Shown in pieces: positions 4,173 through 33,865 of a stretch of 35,731 nucleotides of DNA. Positions within the stretch are counted from its first letter, which is position 1; each line of letters opens with the position of its first letter. The notes below the pieces were generated by a model that had not been told where the DNA came from, did no database searches, and was given only the letters and a program-made list of their open reading frames with translations. Source of the stretch: Ignavibacteria bacterium (GTDB lineage: Bacteria > Bacteroidota > Ignavibacteria > UBA10030 > SZUA-254); NCBI GenBank assembly GCA_016178595.1, contig JACOSY010000007.1, positions 1 to 35,731 of the forward strand, given 5' to 3'. A program made the translations under genes and the position numbers.

Positions 4173-4182
4173 AACGTCGCGC

Positions 4183-4294
4183 GGGAAGTACGGCAGTGCG
4201 GGCGAACGTGAGCTGTTCTTGCTCACGTTTCGACGGCACGCATTGACGTGCTTCCCGATGTTCCGCGCCGTTCGCGAAGCGAACAAGCGGAACA
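4183..4294. repeat. cluster of nested inverted repeats in the gap after the DUF1684 gene
   Basis: The gap 4173-4399 holds two separate palindromic structures. The first runs 4183-4256, with outer arms GGGAAGTACG and CGTGCTTCCC (one G-T pair) and an inner stem AACGTGAGC/GCTCACGTT. The second runs 4259-4294, with TGTTCCGC/GCGGAACA enclosing GTTCGC/GCGAAC. Neither is followed by a T run, so they resemble repetitive extragenic palindromes more than terminators. No gene is seen in this gap. Confidence 0.6.
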
Positions 4295-4399
4295 AGGGTG
4301 TAACCCGCGCGACGTTCCGCAGCGCTCTCATGAGTGAGCGAATCTTTTGTGGTTGCGCATGTGCTCGATGAACAGATTCACTGTAATAAGTAATTCAAA

Positions 4400-5302
4400 A
4401 TGAAATTTACTAACTGCCTCCTCAAACTTATGGGAGGCTGCCTGAATCAGGACGGCAGCTTTAACGTCGAGCGGCGGGGACTTCCCTTCTTCCGTTCGCT
4501 CAATGTGTATCATTGGATGCTGTCGATGTCGTGGATGAAATTCAATGCGCTCATCGTAGCGGCATATTTTTTCACGAATGTAATGTTCGCCATTGGATAC
4601 ACGTCATGCGGACCCGGCGCACTGAACGGCTCAACGGCCATGACGCTTGGAGAGCGTTTCCTCGAAGCCTTTTTCTTCAGCGTCCAAACGCTCGCAACCA
4701 TCGGCTACGGCAGAATGAGCCCGAACGGACTCGCCGCGAATATTCTTGTCACGATTGAAGCGCTGTTTGGCCTGCTTGGCTTTGCACTTGCTACCGGGCT
4801 GCTGTTTGCACGGTTCTCCCGACCGAGTGCAAAAATCATTTTCAGCCGCAATGCACTGATCGCACCGTACCGAGGAATGACGGCATTCGAGTTCCGAATT
4901 GCGAACGAGCGGACGAATGAATTGATCGAAGTCAATGCGACGGTCGTCCTGACGAGAAATGAAATGATCGACGGCAACATTGTCCGAAAATTTTATCCGC
5001 TGACACTTGAACGTCATCAGGTCATGTTCATGCCGCTGCATTGGGTGATTGTCCATCCGATTGATGAGAAAAGTCCATTATACGGCATCACCAAAGAACA
5101 CTTCGATGCCACCGATGCAGAAATTCTTATCCTTCTGACAGGCGTGGATGAAACCTTCTCACAGACGGTGCATGCCCGATCATCCTACAAACATCATGAA
5201 GTGGTATGGGGCTCGAAATTCGCCGACATATTTCTGAAAGACGATGAAGGAAAGCTTTCGATCGATCTTCGGAAGATTCATGATATTGAAGTTCCCGTGT
5301 AA
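4400..5302 (+). CDS. inward-rectifier potassium channel (KirBac family)
   Basis: A 300-residue inner-membrane channel subunit. It starts with an amphipathic segment (LNVYHWMLSMSWMKF) that matches the KirBac slide helix. TM1 follows (residues about 48-66), then a pore loop with selectivity filter TLATIGYG near residues 98-104, and TM2 (about 115-137). Residues about 145-300 are the immunoglobulin-like IRK cytoplasmic domain (FEFRIANERTNELIEVNATV, LHWVIVHPIDEKSPLYGIT). Length and domain order match KirBac1.1/3.1-type channels, which act as tetramers. The ribosome site is weak. The gene lies 21 bases before the next coding region, suggesting shared transcription. Confidence 0.93.
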   Translation: MKFTNCLLKLMGGCLNQDGSFNVERRGLPFFRSLNVYHWMLSMSWMKFNALIVAAYFFTNVMFAIGYTSCGPGALNGSTAMTLGERFLEAFFFSVQTLATIGYGRMSPNGLAANILVTIEALFGLLGFALATGLLFARFSRPSAKIIFSRNALIAPYRGMTAFEFRIANERTNELIEVNATVVLTRNEMIDGNIVRKFYPLTLERHQVMFMPLHWVIVHPIDEKSPLYGITKEHFDATDAEILILLTGVDETFSQTVHARSSYKHHEVVWGSKFADIFLKDDEGKLSIDLRKIHDIEVPV

Positions 5303-7754: not shown

Positions 7755-9428
7755 ATGGCAGACAACAAAATTATTTTCTCGATGATCGGCGTTGGCAAAG
7801 TCTACAAGCCCAACCGTCAAGTTCTGAAAGACATTTATCTCTCCTTCTTCTACGGTGCGAAGATCGGCGTACTCGGTTTGAACGGCGCAGGCAAGAGCAG
7901 TCTCCTCCGCATCATCGCCGGCATCGACAAAGACTACATCGGGCAGGTTCAATCGCAGAAGGGAATCACCTTCGGCTACTTGCCGCAGGAACCCGAACTC
8001 GATTCCACCAAGACTGTGAAGGAAGTGGTGGAAGAAGGCGCACAAGAAACAGTGAGGCTCTTAAAGGAATATGAAACCATCAGCGCGAAATTCTCCGAGC
8101 CTGATGCCGACTACGACAAGCTCATCGAGCAGCAGGCAAAACTGCAAGAAAAGATCGATCACCTGAATGCCTGGGACATTGACAGCAAGCTCGAACAAGC
8201 GATGGACGCGCTTCGCTGCCCATCCGGCGACACTTCAGTGAACATCATCTCCGGCGGCGAGCGTCGCCGCGTGGCTCTCTGCCGCTTGCTTCTCCAGGAG
8301 CCCGACGTCCTGTTACTCGATGAACCGACAAATCACCTCGACGCCGAATCCGTCGCCTGGCTCGAGCAACACCTTGCGCAGTACAAAGGAACGGTTATTG
8401 CCGTCACGCATGATCGTTACTTCCTCGATAATGTTGCAGGATGGATCTTGGAGCTTGATCGAGGCGAAGGAATTCCATTCGAAGGAAATTATTCGTCATG
8501 GCTGGAACAAAAACAGGCGCGGCTCTCCATCGAAGAGAAACAGGAATCGAAACGCAAGAAAGCGCTTGAACAGGAGCTTGAGTGGATCCGCATGAATCCC
8601 AAAGGTCGCCATGCGAAGAGCAAGGCGCGTATCGCTGCCTACGAAAAGATGCTTGACGACGAACAGGAGAATCGCAACGAGGAATTGGAAATCTTCATCC
8701 CACCCGGTCCACGGCTTGGCGACGTGGTTATTCGATCGGAACATGTCGCAAAAGCTTATGGCGACATACTGCTCTACGACGATCTTAACTTCAGCCTTCC
8801 TCCCGGCGGCATCATCGGTATTATCGGCCCGAATGGCGCGGGCAAGACGACGCTCTTCCGCATGATCACCGGTCAGGAGAAACCCGATGCCGGTACGTTC
8901 AAGATCGGTGAGACGGTGAAGTTCGCGTACGTCGATCAAAGCCGTCCGCTCGATCCCAACAAAACGATATGGCAGGAAATCTCCGGCGGCGAGGATTTAA
9001 TCAAGCTCGGCAATCGCGAAATGAACTCGCGTGCGTACGTGGCACGCTTCAACTTCAGCGGCACCGATCAACAAAAACCGACGGACGCTCTATCGGGCGG
9101 CGAGCGCAACCGCGTTCACCTTGCCAAGGTGTTAAAAGAAGGAGCAAACGTCCTCCTTCTCGATGAGCCGACGAACGACCTCGATGTGAACACCCTCCGT
9201 GCTCTCGAAGAAGCGCTGCTGAACTTTGCCGGATGCGCCGTTATCATCTCGCACGACCGGTGGTTCCTCGACCGCGTCGCGACACACATCCTCGCCTTCG
9301 AGGGAGACAGCACTGTGGAATGGTACGATGGCAATTACTCAGAGTTCGAGGAGTACCGCAAGAAAAAACTCGGCATCGAAGCGGACAGGCCGCACAGGAT
9401 TAAGTATAAGAAGTTGATGCGGGCTTAG
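7755..9428 (+). CDS. ettA: energy-dependent translational throttle protein EttA (ABC-F ATPase)
   Basis: A 557-residue soluble ABC-F protein, very close to the length of E. coli EttA (555). It binds the ribosomal E site and gates entry into elongation according to ATP/ADP ratio. ABC1 has Walker A GLNGAGKSS, signature SGGERRRVAL and Walker B LLLDEPTNHLD. ABC2 has GPNGAGKTT, LSGGERNRVHLAKVL and LLLDEPTNDLD. Between them lie the arm and the P-site tRNA interaction region, with WIRMNPKGRHAKSKARI, a segment specific to the EttA subgroup. A TTTTC-type -10-like motif lies at 7699-7710. The last 7 codons and stop context are duplicated downstream (see the repeat at 9402-9575). Confidence 0.95.
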   Translation: MADNKIIFSMIGVGKVYKPNRQVLKDIYLSFFYGAKIGVLGLNGAGKSSLLRIIAGIDKDYIGQVQSQKGITFGYLPQEPELDSTKTVKEVVEEGAQETVRLLKEYETISAKFSEPDADYDKLIEQQAKLQEKIDHLNAWDIDSKLEQAMDALRCPSGDTSVNIISGGERRRVALCRLLLQEPDVLLLDEPTNHLDAESVAWLEQHLAQYKGTVIAVTHDRYFLDNVAGWILELDRGEGIPFEGNYSSWLEQKQARLSIEEKQESKRKKALEQELEWIRMNPKGRHAKSKARIAAYEKMLDDEQENRNEELEIFIPPGPRLGDVVIRSEHVAKAYGDILLYDDLNFSLPPGGIIGIIGPNGAGKTTLFRMITGQEKPDAGTFKIGETVKFAYVDQSRPLDPNKTIWQEISGGEDLIKLGNREMNSRAYVARFNFSGTDQQKPTDALSGGERNRVHLAKVLKEGANVLLLDEPTNDLDVNTLRALEEALLNFAGCAVIISHDRWFLDRVATHILAFEGDSTVEWYDGNYSEFEEYRKKKLGIEADRPHRIKYKKLMRA

Positions 9429-9575
9429 GCGAGAATGTGCCACGCACCTAAGAAAAGTGCGTGGCACTTCGTCGACCCTCACCCTATGATCCCTCTCCCA
9501 CTGGGAGAGGGATGTCACGCAGTGACAGGGAGAGGGTAAGAGAGACACAAGATAAAGTATAAGAAGTTGATGCGG
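9402..9575. repeat. hairpin element flanked by a 21-bp direct repeat of the ettA 3' end
   Basis: The end of ettA (9402-9422, encoding KYKKLMR) is repeated exactly at 9555-9575; the match extends to 25 bp with one mismatch. The second copy still reads as KYKKLMR followed by Gln and a stop. Between the copies lie an 11-bp perfect hairpin (GTGCCACGCAC 9437-9447 with GTGCGTGGCAC 9457-9467), the string CTCACCCTAT (9478-9487), CCCTCTCCC/GGGAGAGGG and GTCAC/GTGAC palindromes. No gene is present. The first hairpin could also end ettA transcripts, though it has no T run. Confidence 0.75.
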
Positions 9576-9590
9576 CAGTGAAGCCCACCG

Positions 9591-9820
9591 TTACCCGATA
9601 TATTCCTTCCCGGTACTGATACGTTTGCTTTTCTCCATGTAATTCTGTAATGTAGCCTCAAGTGTTTGAGGCAAGATCGTCACGCGTTTTTTTGTAAACT
9701 GCAATCGCGAACGGTTGTTTGGAAGGAATCGAGGTCGAGGTTATTGACACGCAACAGTACACATTCCAAGAGACGTAATCCCGATCCGTAGAAGAAGCTT
9801 GCTATAAGCCAATGCAAAGC
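9591..9820 (-). pseudogene. integron integrase (IntI) relic, frameshifted and truncated
   Basis: Reading right to left, the frame from about 9820 gives ALHWLIASFFYGSGLRLLEC, then VLLRVNNLDLD and TTVRD. This matches the IntI box I region ([21 protein letters not shown]). After a 7-base A run (T run at 9687-9693) the match continues in the next frame as RVTILPQTLEATLQNYMEKS to a stop at 9591-9593. The phrase RVTxLPxxLxxxL is diagnostic of integron integrases rather than Xer proteins. One missing A would restore the frame. The N-terminal domain and the C-terminal box II (HxxR and Tyr) are absent, so the gene is dead whatever the cause of the frameshift. Its orientation, opposite to the following cassettes, is as in intact integrons. 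Confidence 0.82.
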
Positions 9821-9913
9821 GACTTGCTATGTGGCAGTTGCAGTATAATTACTAGCTAGGTGACGGTTGCCGTCCTGATGTCTTGAGCTGACAGACACCA
9901 CAAGAGAATTGAT

Positions 9914-10396
9914 ATGGAGTTAACGCCAGACTCGTTGCCGCTGAGGGCAGAACTGATCAAGCATCTCTCAAAAGAGATCGAAGTTCTATCGACAAACATG
10001 ATAACGACAAGGCTGAGAGCTGCTTTTACGGTCTGGGTTGGTCCATATATTCTTCTAGGTGCACTGGTGTTGAAGCAACAGCTTAGCGCCGTAGTCATGC
10101 GCCTCGACCCTCTCGGTGTATCCTTGCTCGCACTTGTATTTGGGTTGTACCTGTCGCTGGCATATATCGCAGGAAGAATGGAAAGGTATGGCGCGCTGAA
10201 ATGTAACGAATGGCGAGACCTGATTACTCGGCTTGGTCTGAAACAAAACCTTGATCTTGATGAAGTCAAAGAGCTATTGCTTGATAACTATCTCCACCGG
10301 AGAATTCGAATTGCCTACGTATTTGTCTGGGTGGCCATGTTTACATCATTCGTGATCATCTTGTACATCTTGGTTCATTTAGGGGTCGGCGGCTAG
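9914..10396 (+). CDS. small membrane protein of unknown function (integron cassette 1)
   Basis: A 160-residue protein with no family I recognise. Three hydrophobic segments are visible, near residues 34-54, 64-86 and 132-156. A soluble stretch around residues 90-130 (YGALKCNEWRDLITRLGLKQ) separates the last two. The N-terminal 30 residues are charged. AAGAGA upstream of the ATG is a weak ribosome site. It begins about 95 bases beyond the integron-integrase relic and its stop lies 29 bases before the attC R'' box, the standard geometry of a gene cassette. Small membrane proteins are common in cassette arrays and some act in phage defence, but nothing in this sequence proves a role. Confidence 0.75.
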   Translation: MELTPDSLPLRAELIKHLSKEIEVLSTNMITTRLRAAFTVWVGPYILLGALVLKQQLSAVVMRLDPLGVSLLALVFGLYLSLAYIAGRMERYGALKCNEWRDLITRLGLKQNLDLDEVKELLLDNYLHRRIRIAYVFVWVAMFTSFVIILYILVHLGVGG

Positions 10397-10425
10397 TGCC
10401 AGTTCAGGCCGTTGACACTGTCGCC

Positions 10426-10497
10426 GCTTAACCCCACATGCAGCCGACGGCGCAAGTGTGATCGTTGGCGCTACGGCTGATGCGCGGTCCGTTAGGC
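10426..10497 (+). other. attC recombination site of cassette 1
   Basis: R'' is GCTTAAC (10426-10432) and R' is GTTAGGC (10491-10497), fitting RYYYAAC and GTTRRRY. Inside, CATGCAGCCG (10437-10446) pairs with CGGCTGATG (10474-10482) leaving one unpaired base in the left arm, as expected for L''/L' with its extrahelical base. Total length is 72 bp, within the attC range. Recombination would occur between G10491 and T10492, which makes 10492 the first base of the next cassette. Confidence 0.85.
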
Positions 10498-10536
10498 TGC
10501 TGCTCCATTCATCAACTACACATTCTCACATACTCC

Positions 10537-12243
10537 ATGAAAATCATCTGCATCGACAAGGACGTCAAAACAACGCTTGAAAGCGGATACTTTATTATTC
10601 CGAGATTTCAGCGACCTTACCTCTGGGAACGGGAGAACGTAGAAGAGTTCTGGAATGATTCAGTAGTTGACAGCAACGAAGAGCATTTTATTGGGTCCAT
10701 CGTCGTCTTTCGAACTAGGGATAGCAAACTTGGTATCGTAGATGGTCAACAGAGACTCACCACCATTACAATGATCCTTTGCGCTCTTCGAAATGCCCTC
10801 TTCGAAATGGGATTCTCCGATCTTGCAAAGGGGGTTCATAGGCTTGTAGAAAAACCAGACATTGGAAACAAAAATCAATTTGTCTTGCAGACAGAGACCT
10901 CATATCCATATCTTCAAGAATACATTCAAAAATTCGGAAAACCTGAAGCAGAACCTTCTCATGGTAAAGAAGAAGATTATTTGAAGGCGGCATTTGATCT
11001 TATTACCTACGGTATCCGTGAAAAATTACAGGCCGCAGGTGCAAGGGCGGGACATCCACCAAAATCGAAACGCAAAAAGCTTCAAAAATTGATTGAGCAG
11101 ATACGCGACCGAATTCTGAACCTTAAACTTATTTTCATCGAGCTTGATCAGGAAGATGATGCGTATTTTGTTTTCGAAACCCTAAATACCCGAGGCAAGG
11201 ATCTCCGTCTCGCAGATCTCGTAAAAAACCACGTAACGCGTCTCTTAAGACCAAAAAATCAGAATGTAGACCTCGCGAAAGACAAGTGGAACAAAATCGT
11301 CGACGTCATCGAGGAGAATGACAATATCTCTCTTGACAGTTTCCTCCATCACTATTGGCTGTCCAAACACGAGTATATCACGGTCAAGAAACTTTTCAAA
11401 TCGTTGAGAAGAGTTATCAAGCTTTCAAACGCGCGCCAATTTCTGGACGAGCTAATCAAAGACTCTCGAACATATAGGGAGATCTACGAACCTTCATTTG
11501 CAATATGGTCCAAGCAGGAATTATCAATCAGTAACTCTTTGAAGGCCTTAAATGAATTCCGAGTAAAGCAGGATCTTCCCATGATTCTCGCGGTTATGAG
11601 GGATTATCGAGACAGCGCCATCAAAAAGAAACACGTTGATCTCCTCCTTCAAGCCGTTGAGAATTTCCACTTTATGTTTACTGCCATCACTTCACAGCGA
11701 TCATCTGGTGGGATCTCTTTTATGTACGCCATGCACGCCCGCCAACTTTCAAGTGCGAAGTCGCTCCAATCCAAAGTTAAGATTATAAGCGATCTCATCA
11801 GAAAACTCCGCGACAAGAAGCCGTCCTACCAGGAGTTTGAGGCTAACTTCGTGCAGAAATTATATTCTAAGGAATTCTCGAAGGACAAGATCCTTGTCCT
11901 ATATGTCCTTAGTAAATTCTACCGACATTTCGACCAATCTGGTGTCCCCGTGGATTTTTCACAAATGACCATTGAACATGTTTCACCTGAGAAACCTCAC
12001 AAAGGCAAAGCAGGCATCCCTAACACAACCATCGGTCAAATCGGTAATCTTCTCTTAGTCGATCATCAACTCAACTCGCAACTTGCAAACAAGGGCTTCG
12101 ACGATAAGAAGCCAATTCTCATCGAATCGAAAGTCTGGCTTGACCCGAAAATACGTTCAGCCAAAAAATGGGGAAAGAAAGAAATTGAAGATCGAACAAA
12201 ATATTTGGCAAGAGAAGCATACAACAAGGTTTGGAAGTTTTAG
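10537..12243 (+). CDS. DUF262/DUF1524 protein, GmrSD-like, in integron cassette 2
   Basis: A 568-residue protein starting at the ATG that begins MKIICIDKDV; an upstream TTG in the same frame lies inside attC and is unlikely. The N-terminal DUF262 (ParB-fold NTPase, GmrS-like) shows IPRFQRPYLWERENVEEFWN, FIGSIVV and the key IVDGQQRLTTITMIL, followed by FETLNTRGKDLRLADLVKNH. The C-terminus is a DUF1524 HNH-type nuclease (GmrD-like) with MTIEHVSPE, IGQIGNLLLVD and NSQLANKGF. Proteins with this fusion include type IV restriction enzymes that cut modified phage DNA (GmrSD) and relatives in BREX and Ssp systems. A phage-defence role is an inference from family. It is the only gene of its cassette. 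Confidence 0.88.
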   Translation: MKIICIDKDVKTTLESGYFIIPRFQRPYLWERENVEEFWNDSVVDSNEEHFIGSIVVFRTRDSKLGIVDGQQRLTTITMILCALRNALFEMGFSDLAKGVHRLVEKPDIGNKNQFVLQTETSYPYLQEYIQKFGKPEAEPSHGKEEDYLKAAFDLITYGIREKLQAAGARAGHPPKSKRKKLQKLIEQIRDRILNLKLIFIELDQEDDAYFVFETLNTRGKDLRLADLVKNHVTRLLRPKNQNVDLAKDKWNKIVDVIEENDNISLDSFLHHYWLSKHEYITVKKLFKSLRRVIKLSNARQFLDELIKDSRTYREIYEPSFAIWSKQELSISNSLKALNEFRVKQDLPMILAVMRDYRDSAIKKKHVDLLLQAVENFHFMFTAITSQRSSGGISFMYAMHARQLSSAKSLQSKVKIISDLIRKLRDKKPSYQEFEANFVQKLYSKEFSKDKILVLYVLSKFYRHFDQSGVPVDFSQMTIEHVSPEKPHKGKAGIPNTTIGQIGNLLLVDHQLNSQLANKGFDDKKPILIESKVWLDPKIRSAKKWGKKEIEDRTKYLAREAYNKVWKF

Positions 12244-12248
12244 CAGCC

Positions 12249-12264
12249 GCCTAACCAGCGGCTC
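12249..12264 (+). other. left half of a decayed attC site after cassette 2
   Basis: GCCTAAC (12249-12255) fits R'' and is followed by CAGCGGCT, a plausible L'', starting 5 bases after the DUF262 gene stop. No GTTRRRY box that could pair with it is found in the following 180 bases, so the right half seems lost. The adjoining DNA is the pair of palindromes at 12265-12319. Confidence 0.5.
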
Positions 12265-12319
12265 CCCGACAAGAATTGTCGGGTCAGGCAAACTGATCCC
12301 GATAAAAAACGTATCGGGA
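12265..12319. repeat. two consecutive perfect hairpins at the end of the cassette array
   Basis: CCCGACAA/TTGTCGGG (12265-12272 and 12276-12283) is followed by TCCCGATA/TATCGGGA (12297-12304 and 12312-12319). Each has an 8-bp stem. They replace the expected right half of attC and may act as terminators or be intergenic palindromic repeats. Confidence 0.6.
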
Positions 12320-33346: not shown

Positions 33347-33766
33347 GACTGCGTGTTGTGCAATCGCGGCGCCATAGGCGTCGAGGAAAGTCCGAGCTCC
33401 AGAGGACAGAGTACCTCCTAACGGGAGGGTACTATTGGCGCAAGCCCATAGCAACGGACAGTGTCGCAGAAAATATACCGCCCTGCCGTTGGCAGGGTAA
33501 GGGTGAAAAGGCGAGGTAAGAGCTCACCACTGACGTCGTAAGGCGTCACGTTGATAAACCCTACTCGGAGCAAGACCATGTAAGTTCCGCTTTCCGCCTC
33601 CGCGGAAGAAGGGTTGTCCGCTCAACTTCTCACACAATGGGAAGACGGAACGGGTAGGTCGCTAGAACTCGTTTGCGAGAACGGGTCCAGAGAAATGATT
33701 GCGGCCCCTTCAATCTTTTTCAAAAGGTTGGAGGGGAGACAGAACTCGGCTTACAGACACGCAGTC
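33347..33766 (+). ncRNA. rnpB: RNase P RNA (class A)
   Basis: The catalytic RNA of RNase P, which matures tRNA 5' ends. Helix P1 is formed by GACTGCGTGT (33347-33356) and ACACGCAGTC (33757-33766), which sets both ends and a length near 420 nt. The universally conserved segments are present: GAGGAAAGTCCGAGCTCC from 33383, AGGGTGAAAAGGCGAGGTAA near 33500, GATAAACCC near 33553 and CAGAACTCGGCTTAC at 33740-33754. A pyrimidine-rich stretch follows the 3' end. A 79-codon frame inside it is spurious. Confidence 0.96.
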
Positions 33767-33865
33767 CTTTCTTTTCCATCAAACCCCGACGAAGATTTTT
33801 ATAGGGAATTGTATGACAAGAATTTGTGTAATCACTCGGCACCCCAGTGAGGATCGGTCCTGTTC

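What the first reader, a model, noticed from the sequence alone, without database searches (positions are those of the whole stretch)
9591..12264. Decayed two-cassette integron with an IntI relic in an FCB-type genome
Seen: a minus-strand relic reading YGSGLRLLECVLLRV and RVTILPQTLEATL, then two plus-strand genes, a complete 72-bp attC (GCTTAAC...GTTAGGC) between them, and a half attC after the second. Known: intact integrons have intI divergent from the cassettes with this spacing. The relic shows an integron once active here that lost the integrase N- and C-termini. Few integrons are recorded in this part of the tree, so its integrase clade would be informative.
Basis: partly seen in the sequence, partly recalled or inferred. 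Interest (0 to 1): 0.75.

Follow-up and report, generated by a model that had tools for sequence, protein, structure and literature searches.

The report
Decayed integron in an Ignavibacteria genome
A broken gene-capturing platform (an integron) with two captured genes sits in this uncultured bacterium's chromosome; that is ordinary for its relatives, but the same genome also carries what looks like an integron-like platform whose recombinase lacks the part thought to define integrons.

Summary
The finding is real. Window 9618-9814(-) is a frameshifted, truncated integron-integrase (IntI) fragment; IntI scores highest of the integrase groups tested. 10426-10497(+) is a complete 72-bp attC: 30.7 bits, E 5e-7 in the window, with a covariance model that did not contain it. 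12249-12264 is the left arm of a second attC, identical over 16 bases to an attC arm of an integron with intact IntI in the same order. Two cassettes remain: an orphan protein and a GmrSD-like restriction protein. More IntI scraps lie at two contig ends; no IntI over the cut-off was found in the draft genome. This is a decayed chromosomal integron, and not a rarity: IntI passes the cut-off in 23 of 98 genomes of the order and 107 of 392 sampled in the phylum.

Following it led to something less ordinary. Contig C55 holds a cassette array beside a tyrosine recombinase that groups with IntI against XerC/XerD but lacks the I2-helix region. Similar arrays occur in other Ignavibacteria and, divergent, in Patescibacteria. 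That is inferred from sequence only.

The parts
9618..9814 (-). intI relic: TIGR02249 positions 117-172 and about 25 residues more, one frameshift near 9690, no N-terminal domain and no C-terminal catalytic part
   Evidence: tblastn with 20 IntI proteins 35.0-45.8 bits for the best piece, against at most 31.2 for 6 I2-less integrases and 22.7 for 2 Xer; profile scores; TIGR02249 31.1 bits
9914..10396 (+). cassette 1 ORF, 160 aa, orphan, membrane-protein-like by eye (not tested); the expected start of this cassette (a GTTAAGC core) was not seen upstream
   Evidence: ORF; 0 families in Pfam, NCBIfam and PADLOC; match in 1 of 98 genomes of the order, its own
10426..10497 (+). complete attC, R'' GCTTAAC ... 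R' GTTAGGC; crossover expected after the G at 10491 (from knowledge of integrons)
   Evidence: R1 30.7 bits, E 5.1e-7; in the genome scan one of two hits, with 150 of 715 first-look candidates scored
10537..12243 (+). cassette 2 ORF, 568 aa from the ATG, GmrSD-like (type IV restriction) protein; cassette start TTAGGC (10492-10497) is the reverse complement of GCCTAA at its end (12249-12254)
   Evidence: scanned from 10540: PF03235 122.8 bits and PF07510 72.3 bits; PADLOC Orf5 467.9 bits and HEC-06 321.5 bits
12249..12264 (+). half attC (R'' and L'' arm GCCTAACCAGCGGCTC); a GTCAGGC at 12283-12289 may be a mutated R'
   Evidence: no match in 100 shuffles; identical to L063 733-748, the arm of an attC, and to L063 2806-2821, a similar arm; R1 only E 0.25-0.37 for 12249-12289
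9402..9422 (+). 21-base tail of the upstream ABC-F gene, repeated at 9555-9575 just before the relic: possible scar of a rearrangement
   Evidence: exact matches at both places
4173..4441 (.). copy of the recombination-site repeat of the second cassette system (contig C55); not part of the decayed integron
   Evidence: 98% over 128 bases to C55, and a gapped 79% match over 4173-4441; not recognised by model R2

Best explanation
This is the remains of a chromosomal integron. An IntI recombinase, divergent from the array, once inserted circular cassettes at an attI site by recombination with folded attC sites. Two cassettes are still in place, each in the + direction. The integrase gene has lost its first third and its C-terminal part, which holds the remaining catalytic residues, and has a frameshift, so it cannot act. 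The deletion on its 5' side probably also took attI and the start of cassette 1. The second attC has lost its right half, so cassette 2 can probably no longer be excised normally. The cassette genes may still be expressed; the platform is dead in cis. Shown: relic identity, attC, half attC, layout, no IntI over the cut-off in the draft genome. Inferred: past activity, the deletion of attI, the order of events.
For: Relic fits IntI best. attC scored by a model that did not contain it. Second R''/L'' arm identical to an attC arm of an integron in the same order. Relic and cassettes are divergent, as in integrons. Cassette 2's start and end match as a circular cassette requires. Cassette 1 has no relative in the 97 other genomes of the order and cassette 2 is a defence-type gene. 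More IntI scraps in the genome: C42:182-274 (47.1 bits; reads [29 protein letters not shown]) and C17:163-210 (17.6 bits; reads DVKTTMIYTHVLN), C17 with an attC of 31.3 bits.
Against: No attI and no GTTAAGC core before cassette 1 were seen. Folding energy of the attC is not unusual. There is only one complete attC, below the default of two that IntegronFinder 2 asks for an array without integrase (passage). R1 is of limited sensitivity. Its training rows were trimmed, and of the 9 training sites present in the sources it listed 4 at full length, 2 as weak partial matches and 3 not at all (long-loop sites); it listed no site in L073, an E. coli plasmid with a dfrA5 cassette. The genome scan scored 150 of 715 candidates, so other attC may exist. 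No near relative allows a comparison of the locus: 1 of the 14 other genomes of the family has the downstream gene, at 36% identity.
Confidence: 0.93

Rival explanations
1. The cassettes and the IntI fragment are real but were brought together by rearrangement: a small attC cluster beside an unrelated intI scrap, not one integron decayed in place.
For: A 21-base repeat of the neighbouring gene's tail lies just before the relic, and IntI pieces that do not overlap this one lie on C42 and C17, so the region may have been rearranged.
Against: Order and divergence are those of an intact integron, and all pieces fit one platform.
Confidence: 0.08
2. The relic belongs to a XerC/XerD, phage or I2-less integrase and the attC is a chance palindrome.
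For: Tyrosine recombinases share the GLR motif, so the other groups match the relic weakly.
Against: IntI scores are clearly highest; the attC has E 5.1e-7 in the window; the exact half-site arm is not expected by chance.
Confidence: 0.02
3. The two cassettes belong to the genome's second cassette system (the C55 array) and the IntI relic is unrelated.
For: That system is in the same genome, and a copy of its site lies in the window at 4173-4300.
Against: The models tell the two site types apart: R2 gave no match in the window at E up to 1; at E up to 0.1, R1 gave 1 weak match in 285 kb of I2-less loci and R2 none in 198 kb of IntI loci and C17.
Confidence: 0.02

Closest known systems
Chromosomal integron of a relative (genome G031, locus L063)
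   Same: IntI divergent from a cassette array; attC arms GCCTAACCAGCGGCTC and GGTCCGTTAGGC
   Different: G031 has an IntI of 442 bits without internal stops and six attC sites in the stretch read (five by the mechanical rule; one more by R1); here only a relic, one attC and a half attC
CALIN (attC cluster lacking integrase), IntegronFinder term, proposed to be degraded integrons (PMC9024848, passages seen)
   Same: cassettes and attC without a working integrase
   Different: only one complete attC, and an intI fragment is still attached
IntI integrons, for comparison with the second system on C55
   Same: AAC...GTT sites with inner arms between codirectional small genes, cassette start complementary to the cassette's own end, recombinase in one branch with IntI against Xer
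   Different: the recombinase lacks about 40 residues around the I2 helix, the sites are hardly seen by the IntI attC model (one weak match), and the array lies 3' of the integrase on its own strand in Ignavibacteria
NCBIfam NF040815 (recomb_XerA_Arch, described as site-specific tyrosine recombinase/integron integrase)
   Same: the C55 integrase scores 216.3 bits and one of an Uhrbacteria genome 214.7
   Different: both just under the cut-off of 220; that family is defined by sequence, not by a cassette array

Membership tests
Integron (IntI type) | recombinase of the IntI family | tested here: met
   relic fits IntI better than I2-less integrases, XerC and XerD
Integron (IntI type) | intact integrase with the I2 region and catalytic residues | tested here: not met
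   fragment of TIGR02249 positions 117-172 plus about 25 residues, with a frameshift; no IntI over the cut-off in the draft genome
Integron (IntI type) | attC site at the cassette end | tested here: met
   10426-10497, R1 30.7 bits
Integron (IntI type) | cassette start matches the R'' at its own end | tested here: inconclusive
   met for cassette 2 (TTAGGC/GCCTAA), not seen for cassette 1 (read)
Integron (IntI type) | attI site next to intI | tested here: inconclusive
   none seen by eye between 9820 and 9914; no model of attI was used
Integron (IntI type) | cassette integration or excision by the integrase | not testable with these tools
   needs an assay
CALIN (IntegronFinder 2 default) | at least two attC sites and no integrase | tested here: not met
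   one complete attC and a half site; threshold from PMC9024848
IntI family, for the C55 integrase | I2 region between the two catalytic halves | tested here: not met
   GLR to HxLRH distance 90-98 residues in 75 of 80 related loci (5 not measured), 133 in 39 of the 41 IntI measured among 48 loci; against IntI4 of 2a3v, 17 profile positions stand for 57 residues
IntI family, for the C55 integrase | phylogenetic grouping with IntI | tested here: met
   IntI plus I2-less against XerC+XerD, SH-aLRT 100; whether IntI lies inside or beside the I2-less group is not resolved, p-AU 0.387

The most novel reading that the evidence does not exclude
The genome runs a second cassette platform on contig C55 whose recombinase belongs to the sister lineage of IntI (or the lineage from which IntI arose) and lacks the I2 helix. 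The same kind of platform occurs across Ignavibacteria (array 3' of the integrase) and Patescibacteria (array divergent, as in integrons). If so, cassettes, circular intermediates and paired AAC...GTT sites came before I2, and these are the living relatives that work on integrase evolution has lacked.
Probability: 0.6. Interest if true: 0.85.

Novelty: new member of a known kind. Interest (0 to 1): 0.5.

Why it matters
The decayed integron itself adds one more case of integron loss in a phylum where intact IntI genes are common, and shows a defence-type gene left behind after the platform died. The system beside it matters more. The eLife 2020 paper on integrase evolution (PMC7790495; [quoted passage not shown] A cassette array run by an I2-less sister of IntI would make that history directly testable.

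Tried and rejected
Rfam gathering search: only RNase P was hit. Folding energy of the attC: not informative. My first idea that C55 carries an ordinary intact IntI was rejected: it lacks the I2 region. A synteny test failed for lack of near relatives. IntI as a descendant of one particular I2-less branch (Patescibacteria, support 80 and 83) is not claimed, because the alternative is not rejected (p-AU 0.387). In the tree two very long generic recombinases met each other; they were left out. Rows lost before the trees: 76 of 85 named loci gave a row, and 10 of 13 added loci. Covariation in the second site type is partly built in, because my finder had asked for complementary inner arms. The split of the 80 loci at 51% identity was chosen after a first look. 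Ten literature searches showed, in titles and starts of abstracts, nothing on I2-less cassette arrays; seven of these lists were cut before the end, and the library holds open-licence PMC papers only and no preprints. Papers: PMC9024848 and PMC9668308 seen as passages, PMC7790495 as abstract and passages; all others only in search listings.

Full report
What was checked. The window is contig C3 of a 3.10 Mb, 97% complete draft genome in 61 contigs. The closest named match of the C55 integrase is an uncultured Ignavibacteria genome (88% identity). The minus strand at 9814-9686 reads LIASFFYGSGLRLLECVLLRVNNLDLDSFQTTVRD and, after one frameshift, 9692-9618 reads KKRVTILPQTLEATLQNYMEKSKRI. TIGR02249 hits this place with 31.1 bits, E 1.7e-7.

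Is the relic IntI? In tblastn with 28 proteins, all 20 IntI gave 35.0-45.8 bits for their best piece; the best of 6 I2-less integrases gave 31.2 and the best of 2 Xer 22.7. Profiles gave IntI 36.7 and 9.9 bits for the two pieces, the two I2-less groups 16.2-20.9 and 7.3-8.5, XerC 10.9 and 3.0, XerD 5.5 and -1.1. So it is an IntI fragment without its first third and without the C-terminal part.

Is the attC real? I built a covariance model, R1, from 12 attC sites of other genomes (10 from the order and phylum, 2 from a class 1 integron), leaving the window out. It scores 10426-10497 at 30.7 bits, E 5.1e-7, with the next window match at E 0.19. The genome scan, which scored 150 of 715 candidates, has two hits: C17:1957-2033 and this one. 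As controls, R1 found all five sites of the class 1 array L071 (two were in the training, two more are near copies) and many sites in phylum arrays it had not seen, such as L115, L117, L118 and L103. It also has clear misses: of the 9 training sites in the sources, 4 were listed at full length, 2 as weak partial matches and 3 not at all, and L073 gave none. The half site 12249-12264 equals the left arm of an attC, and one more such arm, in the G031 array. R1 sees 12249-12289 only at E 0.25-0.37, as one would expect of a truncated site.

The cassettes. Cassette 1 (160 aa) has no family in Pfam, NCBIfam or PADLOC and no match in the 97 other genomes of the order searched. Cassette 2 (568 aa) has GmrSD N and C domains and matches PADLOC Orf5 and HEC-06 models. 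Cassette 2 begins TTAGGC and ends GCCTAA, as a circular cassette should; the corresponding start of cassette 1 was not seen.

The rest of the genome. No IntI passes the family cut-off. IntI C-terminal scraps lie at the ends of C42 and C17, next to short inverted repeats and what reads by eye as IS3-type transposase ends. They do not overlap the window's fragment. C17 continues with small plus-strand ORFs and the other R1 attC. IntI over the cut-off is common around this genome: 23 of 98 genomes of the order, 107 of 392 sampled from the phylum at 85% completeness or more. The finding is therefore a decayed example of a known kind.

The second system. The integrase with the highest TIGR02249 score in the genome, on C55, matches that model in two parts and lacks positions 178-232. 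Its closest solved relative by profile is the integron integrase 2a3v (206 bits), ahead of a XerC-like archaeal protein, XerA and XerD, with 17 profile positions where 2a3v has 57 residues. The distance from GLR to HxLRH is 90-98 residues in 75 of 80 related loci (5 not measured) and 133 in 39 of 41 IntI measured (48 loci looked at; the other two hit an earlier chance motif). C55 and relatives carry runs of small codirectional ORFs with sites of the form TAAC-A-L''...L'-nnAC-GTTA between them.

Tests of that system. A genome-contig scan found 148 relatives and kept the best 80 loci. With a mechanical rule, in the 27 loci of at least 51% identity 25 of 27 sites lie 3' of the integrase on its strand, although 186 kb of 5' flank and only 67 kb of 3' flank were held; in the 53 others, mostly Patescibacteria, 32 of 36 sites lie 5' on the opposite strand, with 234 kb of 5' and 412 kb of 3' flank. 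At least one such site is present in 9 of 27 and 17 of 53 loci; among loci with more than 1.5 kb of the relevant flank, in 7 of 9 and 17 of 30. So many loci show none, and many contigs end beside the integrase. With a somewhat different setting of the rule, single-base shuffles gave 1 hit in 183 kb. The first bases of a cassette match the reverse complement of its own end (5 or 6 of 6) in 18 of 33 neighbouring pairs, against 9.9% of random pairs and 8 of 71 sites paired with themselves. A model R2 from 20 Ignavibacteria sites gave 39 matches at E up to 1 in 74 sources; I compared each listed place with the integrase, and all 39 lie on the expected side and strand. Several of these sources overlap the training records and three loci are present twice; only 5 of the matches are in Patescibacteria loci (L194, L203, L205 and two in L217). 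At E up to 0.1, R1 gave one weak match in I2-less loci and R2 none in IntI loci. In this genome R2 has four hits on C55 and one each on C4, C27, C44, C18 and C15, with 150 of 799 candidates scored. Against a wide reading: none of the 10 stretches from other Bacteroidota outside the order (L280-L289) had an R2 hit, although several carry related integrases; the mechanical rule found sites 3' on the same strand in 4 of these 10.

Phylogeny. IntI and the I2-less integrases form one side of a branch against XerC and XerD, SH-aLRT 100. IntI is one group. IntI falls inside the I2-less rows in the best tree, but holding the I2-less rows together is not rejected (p-AU 0.387). Apart from Xer only ten other tyrosine recombinases of this phylum were added, so a nearer outgroup may exist. 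No recombination was tested, and I cannot exclude that some of these integrases act on other sites.

Verdict. Taken alone I would score it about 0.25. The overall 0.5 reflects the second cassette system that the check uncovered, a site copy of which lies in the window.

Noticed in passing
contig C55 (loci L009, L124): Integron-like cassette array beside an I2-less tyrosine recombinase that groups with IntI; relatives in Ignavibacteria and Patescibacteria.
   Followed up: yes
window 4173-4441: Copy of the C55 site plus the start of the gene at 4400-5302 (ion-channel-like by eye, not tested); C55 carries the same site with only about the first 40 bases of that gene, as if a cassette had been made from chromosomal DNA.
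   Followed up: partly
G000 C42:167-289 and C17:1-270 (L304, L123): IntI C-terminal scraps at two contig ends beside the inverted pair TTTACCCCGTGAGATA / TATCTCACGGGGTAAA: possibly one integrase gene split by an insertion.
   Followed up: partly
L011 (C17) 240-2040: Three small plus-strand ORFs with attC-like palindromes between them (by eye); the stretch 'gatcaatataaacaatgtt' occurs twice, before the first and the second; only the last site is seen by R1.
   Followed up: partly
window 9402-9575: The 21-base end of the ABC-F gene is repeated at 9555-9575; the stretch between holds two hairpins that look nearly perfect by eye.
   Followed up: no
C17 end (L123 13462-13609) and C55 end (L009 8539-8686): The two contig ends share 148 bases at 98%: a repeated element that may have broken the assembly next to the C55 integrase.
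   Followed up: no
L031 (G038): A long IntI match with one TGA in its range and, about 240 bases on and on the other strand, the first half of another IntI.
   Followed up: no
window 33348-33769: Bacterial RNase P RNA, class A.
   Followed up: no
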